A stretch of DNA of 64,000 nt from the NCBI GenBank assembly GCA_001296005.1, contig LJHR01000011.1, positions 124,001 through 188,000 on the forward strand. The letters are read 5' to 3'. Below the pieces are notes generated by a model that had not been told where the DNA came from, searched no databases, and saw nothing but the letters and a program-made list of their open reading frames with translations. The DNA is from an alpha proteobacterium AAP38 (GTDB lineage: Bacteria; Pseudomonadota; Alphaproteobacteria; Azospirillales; Azospirillaceae). The position numbers were made by a program, and so were the translations under genes. Of this stretch, positions 42,675 to 49,961 are shown piece after piece (positions within the stretch are counted from its first letter, which is position 1; each line of letters starts with the position of its first letter).

Positions 42675-42703
42675 TCCCAACGATCCTTCCAGATTATTTG
42701 TTG

Positions 42704-42736
42704 AAAGGCCGGACGGCGATGGCTGTCCGGCCTTTT
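42704..42736 (+). terminator. Rho-independent terminator after gmd-fcl
   Basis: A perfect 11-bp stem AAAGGCCGGAC (42704-42714) with 42725-42735, ending in TTTT. Confidence 0.85.
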
Positions 42737-42909
42737 GCATTTCAGCACGCGGGTGGCGTGCGCTTTGACCCGTTATAACAAAATCACCTTCCGCAATAGC
42801 ATCCCTATGCTTGTTCCGTTGGGGTGACGGCGCGACACTTCTCCCACGCAACCTCACCCATTTGATCCAATCACGCCGCCGGCAGGGCCGGGCGGCCAAG
42901 GGGGAAGTC

Positions 42910-43818
42910 ATGTCCTGGTATGCCCTTGCCACGCTTGAAAATGCCGATGGTCCGGCGGCCCTGGTCTTGCCCGATGGGGCGGTGACAGTGACCGATCTGC
43001 CCGATGCCGGCGACCTTGCCGGCCTGTCGGTCACCGACATCATCCGCCGCTGGGGGGAGTTGGAGGCGCGTATCGACCGTCTGGCCGTGGCCGCCGACAA
43101 TGGCGCGCGGCAGGGGAATGTAGCGTTGACAAAGGCTCCGCGTACCGCGGTACCGTTCCAGCCGTTCCGCATCTTCGGCGCCGCGTCGAACTATATCGAG
43201 CATGCGGCGGAGATGGAGACGAAACTGGCCGCCAAGGTGGACAGCACGCCGTTCGTCTTCATGAAATCCCAATCCAGCATCATCGGCCCCGATGAACCCG
43301 TGGTCCTGCCGCCCGAAAGCCAGAAGGTGGATTGGGAGGTGGAACTGGGTGTGGTCATCGGCAAGGCCGGGCGACGCATCCCGGAGGCACGCGCCCTGGA
43401 TCATGTCGCGGGATATGTCGTGGTCAACGATATCTCCGCCCGCGACCTGACGCGCCGCACCGACTTTCCGTTCAGCCATGACTGGTTCCGGGGCAAGAGC
43501 TTTGACAGTTTCACGCCCGTCGGCCCCTGGTTCGTGCCGAAATCCTGCGTGCCCGACCTGCACCGTCTGCGCCTGACCCTGTCGGTGAATGGGGAGATGA
43601 TGCAGGACGGGACCAGCGGCGACATGATTTTTAACACATTTGAACAGATCGCCTATCTGTCGCGCCTGCTGGAACTGCGCCCCACCGACCTTTTGGCCAC
43701 GGGCACGCCCGCCGGTGTGGGCATGGCACGCGGCATCTTCCTGAAGCCGGGCGACCGCATGGTGGCCGGCATCGAGCATGTGGGCGAGATCGCCAATCCC
43801 GTGATCGCGGAGGGTTGA
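42910..43818 (+). CDS. Fumarylacetoacetate hydrolase (FAH)-family protein
   Basis: A 302-residue FAH-superfamily enzyme and the first gene of a seven-gene operon. The C-terminal catalytic domain shows FGAASNYIEHAAEM, metal ligands in DWEVELGVVIG (Glu-x-Glu), VVNDISARD, KSFDSFTPVGPW and LATGTPAGVGM. Members hydrolyse or hydrate acylpyruvates and ring-cleavage products, or decarboxylate oxaloacetate. The ATG at 42910 is chosen (GGGGA nearby); the open frame upstream is poorly conserved. The stop is 1 nt before the binding-protein gene, so the enzyme and the transporter are made together. Confidence 0.88.
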   Translation: MSWYALATLENADGPAALVLPDGAVTVTDLPDAGDLAGLSVTDIIRRWGELEARIDRLAVAADNGARQGNVALTKAPRTAVPFQPFRIFGAASNYIEHAAEMETKLAAKVDSTPFVFMKSQSSIIGPDEPVVLPPESQKVDWEVELGVVIGKAGRRIPEARALDHVAGYVVVNDISARDLTRRTDFPFSHDWFRGKSFDSFTPVGPWFVPKSCVPDLHRLRLTLSVNGEMMQDGTSGDMIFNTFEQIAYLSRLLELRPTDLLATGTPAGVGMARGIFLKPGDRMVAGIEHVGEIANPVIAEG

Positions 43819-43819
43819 G

Positions 43820-44818
43820 ATGCGCTCGCTCACCCGCATTGTGACCGCCGCCACCCTTCTCACTGCCGGTCTGCTGCTTGGCGGATGCGGGAAGGACAGC
43901 CGCGAGGCGGAGAAGGTCACCTTCAACATGTCCTGGCTGCCCCAGGGCAGTATGGCCGGTGTCATCCTGGCCATCGACAAGGGCTTCTATGCCGAGGAAG
44001 GGCTGGTGGTAGAGGCCGTGCGCGGCTTCGGCGGCATCCGCACGGCCAATGAGCTGGACCAGGGCATGTTCCAGTTCGGCTATGCCGATCCGCTGGCCGT
44101 CATCCTGAACCGTGCCAATGGCGGCACGGCCCGCATGATCGGCGCTATCAGCGACCGCTGGCCCGCCGGCCTCTGCTTCATCAAGGAACGGCACAAGGTG
44201 GAAAGCCCTGCTGATCTGGCTGGCATGGTGGTTGGCGGTGGCCAGAACTCCCCCATGCAGGTGCTGGTACCGGCCTGGCTGGAAAAGAACGGCGTGGACA
44301 AGGGCAAGGTTACGCTGATGCAGTTGGACCCTGCCGTCGTCGTTGCCTCCTTGGTGGAGGGCAAGATCGATGCGGGTGAATGCTGGCTGGGCAATTCGCT
44401 GCCCCTGTTTCGCCGCCGGGCGGAAGAGGCGGGGCTTAGCCTTGGCTGGCTCGCCTATGCCGACTTCAACCTCGACATCTATGGCAACGGTCTGATCAGC
44501 AGCGACAAGGTGATCAAGGAACGCCCCGAACAGGTGCGTGCCTTCCTGAAGGCCACATATCGCGGCTACGCCGCCGCCCTGGCCGATCCCGATGCGGCGG
44601 TGGCCGTGATGCTGAAACATTATCCCATGCTGGATCCGGCCATCACCAAGCAGCAGCTGCTGGAAACCGGCGCGTTGCTGAAGCATCAGGCCCGTGCCGG
44701 TTGGATGGAGGCGGACCGGGTGGCAGGCACGCTCGACTTCCTGCGCGGCGCCTACGGGCTGAAAGCGGATGTGAAGGTTGGCGACGTATTCACCACCGAT
44801 TACTTGCCGCAGCCATAA
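43820..44818 (+). CDS. ABC transporter substrate-binding lipoprotein (NMT1/THI5-SsuA-like)
   Basis: A 332-residue periplasmic binding protein anchored by a lipobox (LLLGGC, Cys23). The fold of the NMT1/THI5 and SsuA/TauA group is seen in VTFNMSWLPQGSMAGVILAIDKGFYAEEGLVVE and FGYADPLAVILNRANG. It is followed by DLAGMVVGGGQNSPMQVLVPAWLE and CWLGNSLPLF. Such proteins bind pyrimidines, sulfonates, nitrate or aromatic acids, so the ligand cannot be told from sequence. It is the substrate-recruiting part of the permease and ATPase encoded three and four genes on. Confidence 0.9.
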   Translation: MRSLTRIVTAATLLTAGLLLGGCGKDSREAEKVTFNMSWLPQGSMAGVILAIDKGFYAEEGLVVEAVRGFGGIRTANELDQGMFQFGYADPLAVILNRANGGTARMIGAISDRWPAGLCFIKERHKVESPADLAGMVVGGGQNSPMQVLVPAWLEKNGVDKGKVTLMQLDPAVVVASLVEGKIDAGECWLGNSLPLFRRRAEEAGLSLGWLAYADFNLDIYGNGLISSDKVIKERPEQVRAFLKATYRGYAAALADPDAAVAVMLKHYPMLDPAITKQQLLETGALLKHQARAGWMEADRVAGTLDFLRGAYGLKADVKVGDVFTTDYLPQP

Positions 44819-44829
44819 GGAGCCGACCC

Positions 44830-45369
44830 ATGTTTCGACCCAAGCCACTGAAGCTCGGCCATCTGGTGCTTAAGGTGCGGGATATCCAGGCATCGCTGGC
44901 CTTTTACCGCGACATTGTCGGGCTGGAAGTGTCCGACTGGATCGACGGGCACATGGTCTTTCTGCGGGCGGGCACGGATCATCACGATCTGGCCCTGTTG
45001 CAGATGCCGCCGGATCAGGCGGCCAGGCACGACCCGGCCATGTCCCCCGTGGAGCATTTCAGCTATCAGGTCGCCGATATGGCGGAGATGGAGAAGATCA
45101 CCGAGTTCCTTATGGAGCGCGGCGTGCCCATCGACCGGGGGTACGGGCGGCATGGGCCGGGCGGCAACACCTTCATCGTGTTCAAGGACCCGGACGGTAA
45201 CAATGTCGAATTCTATTCCGACATGATCCAGGTGGATGAAGCCCATCCCCATACGCCCGCCATCTGGCCCGGCAAACAGATGCACACGTTCGACCGCTGG
45301 GACCTGGAGAAGTTTGTGGTTCCGCCGCCGGCCCGCATCGAACAGCTGAAAAAGGGAGGGGTGAAATGA
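44830..45369 (+). CDS. VOC-family protein, possible extradiol dioxygenase
   Basis: A 179-residue two-module VOC protein. Candidate metal ligands are His11 (LGHLVLKV), His76 (VEHFSYQV) and Glu127 (NNVEFYSD). Their spacing (65 and 51 residues) is close to the 2-His-1-Glu set of BphC-type extradiol dioxygenases, though other VOC enzymes share this layout. The C-terminal 45 residues (WPGKQMHTFDRWDLEKFVVPPP) are an unusual extension. AAGGAG is 8 nt before the ATG at 44830. It overlaps the permease gene by 4 nt. Ring cleavage or lactone/glyoxalase chemistry are the main options. Confidence 0.85.
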   Translation: MFRPKPLKLGHLVLKVRDIQASLAFYRDIVGLEVSDWIDGHMVFLRAGTDHHDLALLQMPPDQAARHDPAMSPVEHFSYQVADMAEMEKITEFLMERGVPIDRGYGRHGPGGNTFIVFKDPDGNNVEFYSDMIQVDEAHPHTPAIWPGKQMHTFDRWDLEKFVVPPPARIEQLKKGGVK

Positions 45370-46115
45370 CCGGCACGATCCGGCGGGCGGCTGAGGCACT
45401 GCTGTTCTGCGTCGCCCTGATCATCCTGTGGGAAGGCGGGGTGCGGCTGTTTGAAGTGAAGCCCTATCTGCTACCCTCGCTCTCCGCCATCGCGGAGGAG
45501 ACGTGGCGGGCAAGGGCCCAGCTCTGGCAGCATTCGCTGGTCACGCTGGGGGAGGTGGCGCTGGGTTTCGCCTTCGCTACCGTCCTGGGTGTGGCGCTGG
45601 CGGCCCTGATCTTCTTCGTGCCACTGGCCAAGCGTACGCTTTACCCGTTCGTGGTGGCGCTGCAATCCATCCCGAAGATCGGGCTGGCGCCCATCATCGT
45701 GGTCTGGTGCGGCTATGGGCTGGCATCGAAGGTCACCATGGCCTTCCTGTTCGCCTTCTTCCCCATCGTCATCACCACCCTGGGCGGGCTGGCCAGCACG
45801 CCGGCACACCTGGAGGAACATTTCCGGGCGCTGGGGGCCAAGCCCTGGGCCTCATTCTGGCGGCTGCGCGTGCCATCGGCCCTTCCCAGTTTTGTCGACG
45901 GGGCCAAGGTCGCCATGCCGCTGGCCGTTATCGGTGCCATCGTGGGGGAGTTTGTCGGGTCCAATGATGGCCTGGGCAATCTGATCCTGATCGCCACCGG
46001 GTCATCGCAGACGGCCCTTTCCTTTTCGGCCCTGTTGGTCGTCACCGGCCTGTCGCTGGCCCTGTTCTATCTGATTGAGGCATTGGGGAGGCTGGTATGG
46101 TGGCGGCAGGGTTGA
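45366..46115 (+). CDS. ABC transporter permease (SsuC/TauC type)
   Basis: A 249-residue inner-membrane permease of the nitrate/sulfonate/taurine group. About six TM segments are seen, with the EAA-type loop EEHFRALGAKPWASFWRLRVPSALP near residue 155. SIPKIGLAPIIVVWCG is a hallmark of SsuC-like permeases. Its ATG overlaps the VOC stop (ATGA) and its end overlaps the ATPase gene by 19 nt. It makes the membrane channel for the binding protein encoded upstream. Confidence 0.92.
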   Translation: MTGTIRRAAEALLFCVALIILWEGGVRLFEVKPYLLPSLSAIAEETWRARAQLWQHSLVTLGEVALGFAFATVLGVALAALIFFVPLAKRTLYPFVVALQSIPKIGLAPIIVVWCGYGLASKVTMAFLFAFFPIVITTLGGLASTPAHLEEHFRALGAKPWASFWRLRVPSALPSFVDGAKVAMPLAVIGAIVGEFVGSNDGLGNLILIATGSSQTALSFSALLVVTGLSLALFYLIEALGRLVWWRQG

Positions 46116-46882
46116 AACCCGTGGCGGACTTGGCCCCAGTGGCCATTGCCATTGATGGCGTGACCAAACGCTTCGGCGGCCTGACGGCGCTGGAGAATGT
46201 GACGGCGGACATAAACGACCGGGAATTCGTCTCCATCCTGGGGCCCAGCGGCTGTGGCAAGAGCACCTTGCTGCGTATCCTGGCCGGGTTGGTCGGGTGC
46301 GAGGAAGGAGGGATCGACATTTTCGGCGGGCGGGTCAGCGGCCCCCGCGATGATGTCGGCGTGGTGTTCCAGACCTCCAACCTGCTGCCCTGGCTGAATA
46401 TCGAGGCGAATTTGCGCCTGGGCCTGGAAATCCGGCGCGGCAAGGCTGTGGCCCGGGCTGCCGATATCGGACCGATGGTCGAAACGCTGGGCCTGAAGGG
46501 GTTTGAAAAGCATTTCCCGCATCAGCTGTCGGGCGGCATGCGCCACCGGGTGGCAATCGGCCAGACGCTGCTGTGCGATCCGCGTGTGCTGCTGATGGAT
46601 GAACCGTTCGGGGCCCTGGACGCGCTGACCCGTGACCGGCTGAACATGGAACTGCTGCGCATATGGCAGCGCGACGCCAAGACCGTCGTCCTGATCACCC
46701 ACTCCATCGCAGAGGCGGTGCTGCTGTCCGACCGGGTGCTGGTGATGTCGGAACGGCCCGGCCGGGTGATCCGCGACGTCACCATCGACCTTCCCCGCCC
46801 GCGTGATCCCAGCAAGACGCGCGAGAGTGCGGCGTTCGGGGAATATGTCGTGGAGTTGAGCCGGTTGATGGGCGTCGGCTGA
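46097..46882 (+). CDS. ABC transporter ATP-binding protein (SsuB/TauB type)
   Basis: A 261-residue ATPase. Walker [11 protein letters not shown] loop VFQTSNLLPWLNI, signature LSGGMRHRVAIGQ, Walker B VLLMDEPFGALD and H-switch ITHSIAEA are all intact. The signature has GGMRHR in place of the usual GGMRQR. It energises the adjacent permease. The 19-nt overlap with the permease gene shows tight coupling. It lies within the seven-gene operon. Confidence 0.93.
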   Translation: MVAAGLKPVADLAPVAIAIDGVTKRFGGLTALENVTADINDREFVSILGPSGCGKSTLLRILAGLVGCEEGGIDIFGGRVSGPRDDVGVVFQTSNLLPWLNIEANLRLGLEIRRGKAVARAADIGPMVETLGLKGFEKHFPHQLSGGMRHRVAIGQTLLCDPRVLLMDEPFGALDALTRDRLNMELLRIWQRDAKTVVLITHSIAEAVLLSDRVLVMSERPGRVIRDVTIDLPRPRDPSKTRESAAFGEYVVELSRLMGVG

Positions 46883-46920
46883 CGCCACACCGTATCCCTT
46901 CCTGAAATCGGGGACTTGCA

Positions 46921-47748
46921 ATGCCCTATCTGTCTCTTGGCGACGATCAATTTTATTATGAGACCCACGGCGAGGGGCCGGCCATTGTGCTGGCTCATGG
47001 GGTGGGCGGCAATCATGCCATCTGGTTCCGGCAGGTGCCGGTGCTGACCAAAGCCTATCAGGTCGTGCTGTTCGACCATCGCGGCTTCGGCAAATCCACC
47101 GACCGAGCCGGCCTGGGCCGCAGCGCCTTTGCCGATGACCTGACCGCCTTGCTGGACCATCTGGGCCTCGACCGTGTGGCGCTGGTGGGGCAGTCGATGG
47201 GAGCGGGGACCTGCATCAATTTCGCCGTGCGCCATCCGGGCCGGGTGGCGGCCCTGTGCATCGCGTCGTCCCTGCATGCGGTTGCGGAGGAGGGCGACGT
47301 GGCCGACCTGATGGCGGCGGCACGGGCGGCCAGCAATGACCTGGCGCAGCTTGACCGTGTGCTGGGCGCACCGTTCAAGGCGCGGGAGCCGGAATTGTCC
47401 TGGCTCTACGCCGCCCTGTCCGGCTTCAACGGCACCGACCGCAAGGGCCTGAAGGGCGATTGGCCACGCAGTGTACCGCCCGCCCTGTTGGGCAGCCTGG
47501 GTTTCCCCATCCTGTTCATCGCCGGGCATCTGGACCCTGTCTTCCCCGTCGATGCCATCCGGGCGGTGCAGGCGCAGGTGCCGGGCAGCTTTCTGGTGGA
47601 AGTGCAGGACACGGGCCATTCCGTGTTCTATGAACGTCCGGTGGAGTTCAATGACAGCCTGTTGAGCCTGCTGCAAATGGCGGGCTTTAAGGGCCGTCGC
47701 AAGTCCGTCCATTCCAACAGTGCCGGGTACAAGCCGGTCGTCGCGTGA
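46921..47748 (+). CDS. Alpha/beta hydrolase
   Basis: A 275-residue alpha/beta-hydrolase fold protein. The oxyanion loop HGVGGN (26-31), FDHRGFGKS (51-59) and nucleophile elbow GQSMGAG with Ser92 are clear. The acid is likely the Asp of HLDPVFP and the base His that of TGHSVFYERP. This layout fits meta-cleavage-product hydrolases and enol-lactonases, but many other esterases share it. The gene follows the ATPase after 38 bp and precedes the dehydrogenase by 14 bp. The tail after residue 250 (GRRKSVHSNSAGYKPVVA) is basic and unconserved. Confidence 0.9.
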   Translation: MPYLSLGDDQFYYETHGEGPAIVLAHGVGGNHAIWFRQVPVLTKAYQVVLFDHRGFGKSTDRAGLGRSAFADDLTALLDHLGLDRVALVGQSMGAGTCINFAVRHPGRVAALCIASSLHAVAEEGDVADLMAAARAASNDLAQLDRVLGAPFKAREPELSWLYAALSGFNGTDRKGLKGDWPRSVPPALLGSLGFPILFIAGHLDPVFPVDAIRAVQAQVPGSFLVEVQDTGHSVFYERPVEFNDSLLSLLQMAGFKGRRKSVHSNSAGYKPVVA

Positions 47749-47762
47749 AAGAGGTCATCGCC

Positions 47763-48701
47763 ATGAAGCCGCCCGTGCTGCTCTACGCCTGCCCCACGGT
47801 GGATCAGGAAGCCTGGGTCAAGGCCCTGAACGCGGCCTGGCCCGGCATCGACATCCGCCTGTGGCCGGAAACCGGCGACAAGAAGGAGATCGACTATGCA
47901 TTTGTCTGGAAGCAGCCGGCGGGCATCCTGTCAGATCTGCCGAACCTGAAGGTGATCTTCTCGCTTGGCGCCGGTGTCGAACATGTGCTGACCGATACGA
48001 CGCTGCCGGGCGATATTCCGCTGGTGCGCATGGTCGATCCCACCCTGGTCACCGGCATGGTGGAATTCGTGGTGATGCGGGTGCTGCATTATCACCGGTC
48101 CATGCCGGATTATGAGGCGCAGCAGAAGGCGGGCATCTGGAAGCAGTTGCCGCAGCTGCTACCGTCCGAACGCCGTATCGGCATCCTGGGCATGGGCGAA
48201 CTGGGGGCGGCCTGCGCCAAGGCGCTGACCGGGTTCGGGTTTGACGTGAGGGGGTGGAGCCGCACGGCCAAGGATGTATCCGGCGTGCGTGGGTTCGCGG
48301 GGCCGGCGCAGCTGGATGGGTTCCTGGCCCAGACCGACATCCTGGTCTGCCTGCTGCCCCTGACCGATCAGACGCGGGGCATCCTGAACCATCGCAACCT
48401 GTCGATGCTGCCGCAGGGTTCCTTCCTGATCAATGCGGCGCGTGGCGGCCATCTGGTGGAAGATGACCTGATCCCGCTGCTGGATCAGGGGCATCTGGCG
48501 GGGGCGACCCTGGATGTGTTTGCCGTGGAACCGCTGCCCGCTGCCCATCCGTTCTGGACCCATCCGAAGATCACCCTGGTCCCGCACGCGGCGGCATTGA
48601 CCCATCCGGGTACCGCGTCGCGCATCGTGGCGGCCAATATCGACCGGCATCGGCGGGGCGAGCCGCTGCACAATGTTGTGGACCGTACGCGCGGCTATTG
48701 A
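47763..48701 (+). CDS. D-2-hydroxyacid dehydrogenase (GhrA-like)
   Basis: A 312-residue NAD(P)-dependent dehydrogenase, the same length as E. coli GhrA (glyoxylate/hydroxypyruvate reductase A). The nucleotide-binding loop is RIGILGMGELGAACAKAL. Catalytic residues are Arg in LINAARGGHLVEDDLI, Glu in VFAVEPLPAAHPFW and His in TLVPHAAALTHP. The ATG at 47763 has AAAGAGG at 7 nt; a GTG at 47745 is possible. It is the last gene of the operon, where it could reduce a 2-oxoacid end product of the pathway. Confidence 0.9.
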   Translation: MKPPVLLYACPTVDQEAWVKALNAAWPGIDIRLWPETGDKKEIDYAFVWKQPAGILSDLPNLKVIFSLGAGVEHVLTDTTLPGDIPLVRMVDPTLVTGMVEFVVMRVLHYHRSMPDYEAQQKAGIWKQLPQLLPSERRIGILGMGELGAACAKALTGFGFDVRGWSRTAKDVSGVRGFAGPAQLDGFLAQTDILVCLLPLTDQTRGILNHRNLSMLPQGSFLINAARGGHLVEDDLIPLLDQGHLAGATLDVFAVEPLPAAHPFWTHPKITLVPHAAALTHPGTASRIVAANIDRHRRGEPLHNVVDRTRGY

Positions 48702-48707
48702 CCCCTG

Positions 48708-49961
48708 TCAGCCCTTGTCCAGGGCGCCGGGGAACCGGTCCACCTTGCGCAAGGCGGGAAACAGAACGCACCACAGCGCCACGATCACCAGCGTGCCGAC
48801 CCCGCCGACGATCACGGCGGGACCGGCACCCCACCAATGGGCCGTCAGGCCGCTTTCAAACTCACCCAACTGGTTGGACGCGCCGATGAACAAGCTGCTT
48901 ACGGCGCTGACGCGGCCGCGCATGTCATCGGGTGTTTCCAGCTGCACCAGCGACTGGCGGATGAAGACGCTGACCATATCCACCGCGCCCATGACGATCA
49001 GGGCAATACCCGCCACGATGGCCGAACTGGTGGACCCGAAGATGATGGTACCGACGCCGAAGGCGGCGACGCAGATGAACAGCACCCGGCCCACCCGCCG
49101 CCGCACGGGCCAGAAGGCCAGCACCAGCCCCGTCGCCAGCGCACCGACCGAAGGGGCGGCGCGCAGGATGCCGGCCATGACGGGACCTGCATGGAACTGA
49201 TCCTTGGCCAGAACCGGCAGCAGCGCCGTCGCCCCGCCCAGTAGCACCGCGAACAGGTCCAGTGAGATGGCGCCCAGCACGATGGGTTTGCCCCAGATGA
49301 AGCGGAAACCCGCGAACAGGGTTTCCAGGCTGACCTTCTTCACCGCCGCAGGATTGGTCTTTGGCGGTAGCTTGATGAACCGGACCAGAATGAAGGCGAC
49401 CATGAACAGCAGGGCGCACAGCGCGAAGACCCAATGGCCGATAAAGCCGTAAAGCAACCCGCCCAGCGCCGGCCCGACAATGGACGCCCCCTGCCACGCC
49501 GATGAATTCAACGCCACCGCGCGGGGAAAGATGGCGGGCGGGATCAGGTTGGGCACCAGCGATGCCGCCGCCGGCATCTCAAACGCACGGGCGGTGCCCA
49601 GGATGGTGACTGACAGGAAGGCCGGCCACAGCGCCTTGGTATTGTCATCCCAAAGCGCCATCCACAGCACCAGCATGGCGACGATTTCCAGCCCCTGGCA
49701 GACATTGATCACGCGGCGGCGGTCGAACCGGTCGGCAACATGGCCCGTGACCAGTACCAGAAGGATGGAGGGCAGAAACTCCGCCAGCCCGATGAAGCCC
49801 AGCGCCATGGCGCTGCCCGACACGTCATATACGCGCCAGCCGGTGGCAACGATCTGCATCTGAAGGGCCAGGATGGCGCAGATACGGGCAAACCAGAAAA
49901 GCCGATAGGGGGTATAGGCGAAGGGGCTGGTCGGCTGATCGACCGGGGAGGCATCGGACAT
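48708..49961 (-). CDS. MFS transporter (EntS-like drug/siderophore exporter family)
   Basis: A 417-residue membrane protein with twelve predicted TM segments. Visible features are LFWFARICAILALQMQIVATGWRVYD at the first segment, the MFS loop signature GHVADRFDRRRV and MGAVDMVSVFIRQSLVQLETPDDMRGRVSAV in the second half, where the RGRVSAV motif is characteristic of the EntS/DHA3 group. Members export siderophores or drugs. It converges with the seven-gene operon, with only 6 bp between stops. A structured region with a small ORF lies upstream. Confidence 0.9.
   Translation of the reverse strand: MSDASPVDQPTSPFAYTPYRLFWFARICAILALQMQIVATGWRVYDVSGSAMALGFIGLAEFLPSILLVLVTGHVADRFDRRRVINVCQGLEIVAMLVLWMALWDDNTKALWPAFLSVTILGTARAFEMPAAASLVPNLIPPAIFPRAVALNSSAWQGASIVGPALGGLLYGFIGHWVFALCALLFMVAFILVRFIKLPPKTNPAAVKKVSLETLFAGFRFIWGKPIVLGAISLDLFAVLLGGATALLPVLAKDQFHAGPVMAGILRAAPSVGALATGLVLAFWPVRRRVGRVLFICVAAFGVGTIIFGSTSSAIVAGIALIVMGAVDMVSVFIRQSLVQLETPDDMRGRVSAVSSLFIGASNQLGEFESGLTAHWWGAGPAVIVGGVGTLVIVALWCVLFPALRKVDRFPGALDKG

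What the first reader, a model, noticed from the sequence alone, without database searches (positions are those of the whole stretch)
42910..48701. A seven-gene uptake-plus-ring-cleavage operon of unknown substrate
Seven genes are tightly packed (1-nt gap, 11-nt gap, 4-nt and 19-nt overlaps, 38-nt and 14-nt gaps): FAH enzyme, THI5/SsuA-like lipoprotein, VOC protein, permease, ATPase, alpha/beta hydrolase, GhrA-like dehydrogenase. VOC ligands His11, His76 and Glu127 have spacing near that of BphC extradiol dioxygenases. Extradiol dioxygenase, C-C hydrolase and FAH hydratase are the core of meta-cleavage pathways (established). Here they come with a dedicated transporter and no known aromatic oxygenase, so the substrate and exact order are unknown. 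This is the best candidate for an undescribed pathway.
Basis: partly seen in the sequence, partly recalled or inferred. Interest (0 to 1): 0.75.

Follow-up and report, generated by a model that had tools for sequence, protein, structure and literature searches.

The report
Uptake-and-ring-opening module tied to kynurenine
A packed set of bacterial genes for importing and opening an unidentified aromatic compound recurs in many unrelated bacteria, usually ones that also carry the genes to break down 3-hydroxyanthranilate, a product of tryptophan, so its unknown food molecule is probably a tryptophan-derived compound such as xanthurenic acid.

Summary
The block FAH - binding protein - VOC - permease - ATPase recurs, in that order and on one strand, in 41 of 59 loci found through the VOC protein (alpha-, beta- and gammaproteobacteria). 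The seventh gene (GhrA-like) is a local addition. The new result is a link to the 3-hydroxyanthranilate (3-HAA) branch of the kynurenine pathway: 3-HAA dioxygenase is in 36 of 37 VOC-carrying genomes tested, against 33 of 372 in an Alphaproteobacteria sample; in the window's genus it is in exactly the 3 of 11 species with the VOC gene; and it lies within 30 kb of the VOC gene in 12 of 22 genomes (0.26 expected). In N. cyanobacteriorum both loci are on one megaplasmid. The VOC protein keeps the metal triad and two second-sphere histidines of extradiol dioxygenases, but has an invariant Val where they have the catalytic Tyr, and only one domain. Best reading: an uptake and ring-opening front end that delivers a tryptophan-derived compound, perhaps xanthurenate, to the 3-HAA meta-cleavage pathway. 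Substrate and order of steps are inferred, not shown. Ten library searches found no description of the module.

The parts
42703..42737 (+). intrinsic-terminator-like hairpin after the upstream GDP-L-fucose synthase gene (likely boundary of the unit)
   Evidence: sequence read; fold -30 kcal/mol, z -6.95; not listed by the consensus scan
42910..43818 (+). FAH-superfamily enzyme, 302 aa; metal ligands Glu143, Glu145, Asp174 and His98/Glu101 dyad
   Evidence: Pfam FAA_hydrolase 236 bits; residues 64 of 64 rows; best PDB match HpcE, then diketo-deoxyrhamnonate hydrolase
43820..44818 (+). NMT1/THI5-like substrate-binding lipoprotein, lipobox LGGC
   Evidence: best PDB matches 4nmy and the formylaminopyrimidine-binding protein 3ix1
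44830..45369 (+). single-domain VOC protein ('VOC1'), putative ring-opening dioxygenase; His11, His76, Glu127, His52, Arg103, His108, Val117
   Evidence: model pLDDT 92.4; best fold match 3b59, then a mix of glyoxalase-named, extradiol and Fos proteins
45366..46115 (+). ABC permease
   Evidence: Pfam BPD_transp_1; EAA-type loop
46097..46882 (+). ABC ATPase; Walker A, Walker B and LSGG motifs present
46921..47748 (+). alpha/beta hydrolase with Ser92, Asp205, His233
   Evidence: the three positions invariant in 14 sequences
47763..48701 (+). GhrA-like D-2-hydroxyacid dehydrogenase (local addition, probably not core)
   Evidence: NCBIfam GhrA 285 bits, below its cut-off of 403; near VOC1 in 1 of 59 loci

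Best explanation
The block is the uptake and ring-opening front end of a catabolic pathway that delivers a tryptophan-derived aromatic compound to the 3-hydroxyanthranilate (3-HAA) / 2-aminomuconate meta-cleavage pathway. The lipoprotein, permease and ATPase import the compound. VOC1, a metal-dependent extradiol-like dioxygenase, opens a ring. FAH cuts the resulting 2,4-dioxo (acylpyruvate-like) side chain. The serine hydrolase cuts a remaining ester, amide or C-C bond. The product, most likely 3-HAA itself, is then opened by 3-HAA dioxygenase and finished by a probable aminocarboxymuconate-semialdehyde decarboxylase, a semialdehyde dehydrogenase, a deaminase, a decarboxylase and an aldolase, which are encoded elsewhere in the window's genome and on the same megaplasmid in N. 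cyanobacteriorum. My favoured substrate is xanthurenic acid (8-hydroxykynurenic acid): it is the side product of 3-hydroxykynurenine, carries the 3-HAA skeleton and is already hydroxylated, which would explain why no hydroxylase travels with the module. Shown: gene content, intact active-site residues, recurrence, co-occurrence and co-location. Inferred: dioxygenase activity, order of steps, substrate.
For: Five-gene core in order on one strand in 41 of 59 loci; FAH within 2.5 kb upstream in 56 of 59. In Sphingopyxis L037 the module lies between kynureninase and 3-HAA dioxygenase with the muconic-semialdehyde lower pathway; in Parahaliea L041 kynureninase follows the hydrolase after 4 nt. 3-HAA dioxygenase over cut-off in 36 of 37 carrier genomes against 33 of 372 in a class sample that includes two carriers; in the genus 3 of 11, the same three that carry a 96-100% identical VOC1. 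Kynureninase over cut-off in 31 of 37, partial in one more, fragments in the window's genome; tryptophan dioxygenase in 31 of 37. Within 30 kb: 3-HAA dioxygenase in 12 of 22 genomes (0.26 expected), kynureninase in 10 of 22 (0.28 expected) (positions). N. cyanobacteriorum: kynurenine locus and VOC1 on one 1-Mb replicon, about 110 kb apart. Of four carriers without kynureninase (G467, G478, G481, G483) three have 3-HAA dioxygenase, as expected if the module itself leads to 3-HAA; but all four are metagenome bins, so absence is weak. Two unrelated serine hydrolases replace each other: 12 loci with the window type at 50% identity or more, 32 with the HSL type, 0 with both, 15 with neither. VOC1 and FAH active-site residues invariant.
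Against: No substrate evidence of any kind. Val117 stands where extradiol enzymes have Tyr. In 10 of the 22 genomes the module is not seen within 30 kb of 3-HAA dioxygenase (contig ends play a part), and one carrier (G481) has none. No kynurenine gene is adjacent in the window itself. Companion genes differ between clades (HSL hydrolase, DHDPS-like, RidA, nitroreductase-like, 2-hydroxyacid dehydrogenase in many beta loci; a ThDP enzyme and an aldehyde dehydrogenase in gamma loci), and my scheme does not assign them. The base rate of 3-HAA dioxygenase in Burkholderiales was not measured. The three genus carriers are close relatives and may be one event. The shared node could be the lower pathway rather than 3-HAA.
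Confidence: 0.45

Rival explanations
1. Classical meta-cleavage: VOC1 opens the benzene ring of an imported catechol or o-aminophenol, the alpha/beta hydrolase is a C-C hydrolase and FAH a hydratase or decarboxylase; the kynurenine locus supplies only the shared lower pathway.
For: VOC1 metal triad and His52/His108 at the places of extradiol His200/His248; FAH closest in the PDB to HpcE with HpaG second among NCBIfam models; a DHDPS-like aldolase gene in 36 of 59 loci, best resembling DapA with HpaI-NOT-DapA next.
Against: Val at the Tyr position; no shared hydroxylase partner found; 3-HAA dioxygenase, specific to the 3-HAA branch, co-occurs in 36 of 37 genomes, which a shared lower pathway alone does not demand.
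Confidence: 0.25
2. Kynurenate branch: VOC1 is the 7,8-dihydroxykynurenate 8,8a-dioxygenase, and the DHDPS-like enzyme is a hydratase-aldolase acting on the oxopropenyl picolinate product. The pathway steps, and that the enzyme has no assigned gene, are recalled and come from no call.
For: Link to kynurenine genes; DHDPS-like gene in 36 of 59 loci; RidA or aspartate-dehydrogenase-like enzymes that could handle the ring nitrogen.
Against: No ring-hydroxylating dioxygenase shared among loci was found (unshared flank genes were mostly not annotated); it would not explain the tie to 3-HAA dioxygenase.
Confidence: 0.12
3. VOC1 is not a dioxygenase but a metal-dependent isomerase, lyase or hydrolase of the glyoxalase/FosA kind, acting on a ring-opened intermediate of the 3-HAA pathway or on its side products (for example salvage of quinolinate or picolinate).
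For: Missing Tyr; several single-domain glyoxalase-named, FosA and FosB structures rank close in the fold search; the tie to 3-HAA dioxygenase.
Against: Two histidines at the places of extradiol second-sphere residues are invariant; a dedicated importer points to an external substrate.
Confidence: 0.12
4. Uptake of an aliphatic sulfonate, nitrate or similar, with unrelated neighbours.
For: Binding protein matches SsuA_fam and taurine-binding models; a TauE-type transporter is in some loci.
Against: SsuA_fam 72 bits against a cut-off of 163.5; conserved enzyme partners; kynurenine link.
Confidence: 0.05

Closest known systems
Bacterial kynurenine / 3-hydroxyanthranilate meta-cleavage pathway
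   Same: Module co-occurs and often co-locates with kynureninase, 3-HAA dioxygenase, an amidohydrolase (probable decarboxylase), muconic semialdehyde dehydrogenase, RidA-type deaminase and aldolase genes
   Different: The window genes are none of its known enzymes; as recalled, the described pathway needs no VOC, FAH or ABC importer
Type I extradiol (VOC) dioxygenases: BphC, catechol 2,3-dioxygenase, homoprotocatechuate 2,3-dioxygenase (HPCD)
   Same: 2-His-1-Glu triad with spacing 65/51; His52 and His108 at the places of His200 and His248
   Different: Single domain of 179 aa; Val117 for Tyr257; no NCBIfam cut-off met
HpaG/HpcE and acylpyruvase-type FAH enzymes
   Same: Metal triad and His/Glu dyad invariant in 64 of 64 rows; HpcE is the best PDB match
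   Different: Below every NCBIfam cut-off listed
NMT1/THI5-like ABC importers
   Same: Binding lipoprotein, permease and ATPase
   Different: Interleaved with enzyme genes; ligand unknown

Membership tests
Type I extradiol dioxygenase | 2-His-1-carboxylate metal triad | tested here: met
   His76 and Glu127 64 of 64; His11 60 of 60, 4 rows truncated by start choice
Type I extradiol dioxygenase | second-sphere acid-base His (HPCD His200) | tested here: met
   His52, 64 of 64; placed by the HHD/HHR alignment with 3b59 and the HD-x-A motif, not by superposition
Type I extradiol dioxygenase | second-sphere His (HPCD His248; number recalled) | tested here: met
   His108 in RGxGRHG, 64 of 64
Type I extradiol dioxygenase | catalytic Tyr (HPCD Tyr257) | tested here: not met
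   Val117 aligned with Tyr of homoprotocatechuate dioxygenase 1f1r; Val in 64 of 64
Type I extradiol dioxygenase | two-domain subunit | tested here: not met
   179 aa, one domain; single-domain members are recalled to exist
Type I extradiol dioxygenase | O2-dependent ring cleavage | not testable with these tools
   needs purified enzyme
FAH superfamily hydrolase | Glu-Glu-Asp metal site and His/Glu dyad | tested here: met
   64 of 64; the role of the dyad is recalled
Meta-cleavage-product C-C hydrolase (BphD/MhpC) | Ser-His-Asp triad | tested here: met
   invariant in 14 sequences; shared with esterases
Meta-cleavage-product C-C hydrolase (BphD/MhpC) | family score over the curated cut-off | tested here: not met
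   BphD 47.9 of 462, HsaD 70.3 of 400 bits; PcaD (a lactonase) 97.9 of 256
NMT1/THI5 ABC importer | binding lipoprotein, permease and ATPase with intact motifs | tested here: met
Kynurenine/3-HAA catabolic locus | co-occurrence and co-location with 3-HAA dioxygenase | tested here: met
   36 of 37 genomes; 12 of 22 within 30 kb; not adjacent in the window itself
Kynurenine/3-HAA catabolic locus | substrate is a tryptophan metabolite | not testable with these tools
   needs growth, binding and enzyme assays

The most novel reading that the evidence does not exclude
The module is the first gene set for bacterial uptake and opening of a quinoline-2-carboxylate (xanthurenic or kynurenic acid), using a small extradiol-like VOC enzyme that works without the catalytic tyrosine and feeds 3-hydroxyanthranilate to the meta-cleavage pathway.
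Probability: 0.27. Interest if true: 0.75.

Novelty: new variant of a known kind. Interest (0 to 1): 0.55.

Why it matters
Kynurenic and xanthurenic acids are signalling molecules in animals and plants and, as recalled, bacterial enzymes that consume them have been known biochemically for decades without assigned genes. If this module is such a route, it gives testable genes, and markers for which soil, water and host-associated bacteria remove these compounds. If not, it still defines a widespread catabolic module, apparently moved between distant bacteria, with a clear place beside tryptophan metabolism, and a small dioxygenase-like family with an altered active site.

Tried and rejected
Shared hydroxylase: crude motif scans for Rieske and FAD proteins on the open frames of the first locus set and clustering of flanks that reach 30 kb in about 20 genomes gave no conserved one; flank genes found in a single genome were mostly not annotated. 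A PnpA/HspB-like flavin hydroxylase lies by the module in two loci, but relatives at E<=1e-60 occur in only 7 of 37 genomes, so it was dropped as a core gene.

LVIVD-like secreted beta-propeller protein of these loci: modelled in the hope of a substrate clue; mean pLDDT 62.8, best Foldseek match the Sphingobium phosphotriesterase 5hrm at 12% identity. Not used.

Literature: ten searches showed nothing on this cluster; four of them returned no paper at all, in part because the terms were strict. I saw search listings only and opened no paper. The library lacks most subscription journals, so absence is weak evidence.

Sulfonate uptake: rejected, because the SsuA_fam score is far below its cut-off.

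Rows dropped before counts: L090 and L091 (distant matches) were left out of the 59-locus counts; 4 of 64 VOC rows lacked residue 11 because of my start choice; the window-type hydrolase was counted at 50% identity or more, which leaves out a 38% match in L054. 38 of the 59 loci plus the window genome were handed to the genome searches, giving 37 genomes (L045 not held; L059 and L087 share one). G462 there appears to be the same genome as the genus member G072 (same matches at the same places). 22 of the 37, picked by me for mapping, were used in the distance test.
Full report
What is there. The seven genes at 42910-48701 are intact and packed as described. A strong terminator-like hairpin lies between them and the upstream GDP-fucose synthase gene; the 417-aa frame at 48708-49961 (MFS-like by eye) points the other way. 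Pfam gives FAH, NMT1/THI5, Glyoxalase (VOC), permease, ATPase, alpha/beta hydrolase and D-2-hydroxyacid dehydrogenase. None of the four enzymes reaches an NCBIfam cut-off in the rows shown, so their substrates cannot be read from families. The window lies in an Azospirillaceae genome of the Niveispirillum group: the seven proteins are 92-99% identical to those of an operon on the 1-Mb plasmid of N. cyanobacteriorum TH16.

The module recurs. One scan of genome contigs with the VOC alignment returned 61 loci. I left out two distant ones. In the remaining 59, FAH lies within 2.5 kb upstream on the same strand in 56, the binding protein immediately upstream in 45, permease downstream in 44, ATPase in 44, and the complete five-gene order is in 41. 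Some contigs are short, so these are lower bounds. Of the 14 loci without the ABC binding protein upstream, 9 have a tripartite-tricarboxylate-type binding protein and 5 have neither; 2 loci have both. The serine hydrolase is of the window's type (50% identity or more) in 12 loci and of an unrelated HSL type in 32, never both; 15 have neither. One of the 12 (L042) also has another Abhydrolase_3 protein that the HSL query did not reach, and L054, counted under neither, has a 38% match to the window type and its own Abhydrolase_3 protein. On a tree of 63 VOC proteins the window type needs 2 changes against a mean of 12.0 in shuffles; the window's VOC protein groups with Shewanella, Bowmanella, Lacimicrobium and Parahaliea, with the Sphingopyxis group as next neighbour (some branches are long), which suggests horizontal transfer. 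The GhrA-like gene is near VOC1 in only 1 of the 59 loci, of the same genus, and in N. cyanobacteriorum; a 67% relative lies 6.7 kb from kynureninase in a genus member without VOC1. It is a local addition.

The link to 3-hydroxyanthranilate. In Sphingopyxis microcysteis (L037 and flanks) the module sits between kynureninase, an amino-acid permease and an amidohydrolase (probable aminocarboxymuconate-semialdehyde decarboxylase) on one side and muconic semialdehyde dehydrogenase, RidA-type deaminase, 3-HAA dioxygenase and aldolase genes on the other. In Parahaliea kynureninase follows the hydrolase gene after 4 nt. I then tested this at genome level. Of 37 genomes that carry VOC1, 36 have 3-HAA dioxygenase over the cut-off, 31 have kynureninase over the cut-off and 31 have tryptophan dioxygenase. 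In an Alphaproteobacteria sample, which includes two carriers, 33 of 372 have 3-HAA dioxygenase; the base rate in Burkholderiales, where most carriers lie, was not measured. In the window's genus a 96-100% identical VOC1 is in 3 of 11 species (others have only weak VOC matches) and 3-HAA dioxygenase in the same 3 of 11, while kynureninase is over the cut-off in 9 of 11 and broken or partial in the other two. So the tie is to the 3-HAA branch rather than to kynureninase in general, though the three are close relatives. Among 22 genomes with mapped positions, 3-HAA dioxygenase is within 30 kb of VOC1 in 12 (0.26 expected, P about 3e-18) and kynureninase in 10 (0.28 expected, P about 2e-14). These P values treat genomes as independent, which they are not; the 12 are nine named genera (Herbaspirillum twice) and two unplaced metagenome bins.

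The window's own genome. Kynureninase pieces, each below the family cut-off, lie at the ends of contigs C8, C21 and C49. Beside them C8 holds the probable decarboxylase, 3-HAA dioxygenase, deaminase, decarboxylase, aldolase, semialdehyde dehydrogenase, LysR and a symporter; C21 holds a DHDPS-like enzyme, a second small VOC, an aspartate-dehydrogenase-like enzyme, a TauE-type transporter and a second FAH. The complete relative N. cyanobacteriorum has these in one uninterrupted run at C3:560-580 kb, with a kynureninase over the cut-off in the middle and VOC1 at C3:687 kb on the same replicon. The small VOC, aspartate-dehydrogenase-like and TauE genes stand next to the module in Sphingopyxis. So genes that stand beside the module elsewhere are present here too, about 110 kb away in the relative.

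VOC1. The AlphaFold2 model is confident (pLDDT 92.4). The best structural match is 3b59, a Mn(II)-bound glyoxalase-named protein, followed by a mix of lactoylglutathione-lyase-named, extradiol, integron-cassette and Fos proteins, so the fold alone does not decide the chemistry. Sequence says more. Invariant in 64 sequences are His76, Glu127, His51-His52-Asp53, Arg103 and His108; His52 and His108 fall at the places of the extradiol His200 and His248 (the numbers 200 and 257 appear in titles, 248 is recalled). But Val117, also invariant, replaces the catalytic Tyr. It may work like an extradiol enzyme; I do not file it as one.

Mechanism proposed. Import, oxygenolytic ring opening by VOC1, hydrolysis of a dioxo side chain by FAH, hydrolysis of the last bond by the serine hydrolase, release of 3-HAA. 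The exchange between two unrelated serine hydrolases fits one hydrolytic step. Three of the four carriers without kynureninase still have 3-HAA dioxygenase, as expected if the module itself leads to 3-HAA, but all four are metagenome bins (titles), so a missing gene may be missing sequence. That no shared hydroxylase was found fits a substrate that is already hydroxylated. Xanthurenic acid meets all this, but nothing here shows it. The ThDP enzyme and aldehyde dehydrogenase in gamma loci, and the DHDPS-like, RidA, nitroreductase-like and 2-hydroxyacid dehydrogenase genes in beta loci, remain unassigned.

Verdict. The operon is a new variant of a known kind (a catabolic uptake-plus-cleavage operon) with an unusually strong clue to its place in metabolism. 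Ten searches of the open library found no description (listed under tried and rejected).

Noticed in passing
L032:851-2596, L065:17697-19418, L096:5855-8608 (frame too long at its start) and others: A secreted LVIVD-like beta-propeller protein of about 585 aa, without a Pfam hit in the two copies scanned, stands near the kynurenine/VOC1 loci in 14 of 26 genome groups clustered, in some loci with a porin and a small cytochrome-c-like frame (by eye). Function unknown; best weak fold match is a Sphingobium phosphotriesterase.
   Followed up: partly
G000 contigs C8, C21, C49 (L097, L096, L095): Kynureninase is cut at contig ends in the window's genome; gene order in a complete relative indicates that the C21-C8 pair is one locus.
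   Followed up: yes
L096:370-2575; L137:8707-10902: A DHDPS-like enzyme, a small VOC protein and an aspartate-dehydrogenase-like protein form a companion set next to kynureninase; roles unknown.
   Followed up: partly
L054:1-1185 and L082:4086-5294: Flavin hydroxylases beside small VOC, Abhydrolase_3 and aspartate-dehydrogenase-like genes; the L082 one is closest to PnpA and HspB among solved structures.
   Followed up: partly
L042:18428-20414: A second, partial set (small VOC, binding protein, DHDPS-like) lies about 8 kb from the module in an uncultured proteobacterium.
   Followed up: no
G470:C346:973-1482: A second VOC1 copy, 60% identical to the window's, in the same genome as L039.
   Followed up: no
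L026:6345-6938: The nitroreductase-like gene scores over the cut-off of the malonic semialdehyde reductase model (269.5 against 152 bits); why a RutE-like enzyme travels with the module is unexplained.
   Followed up: no
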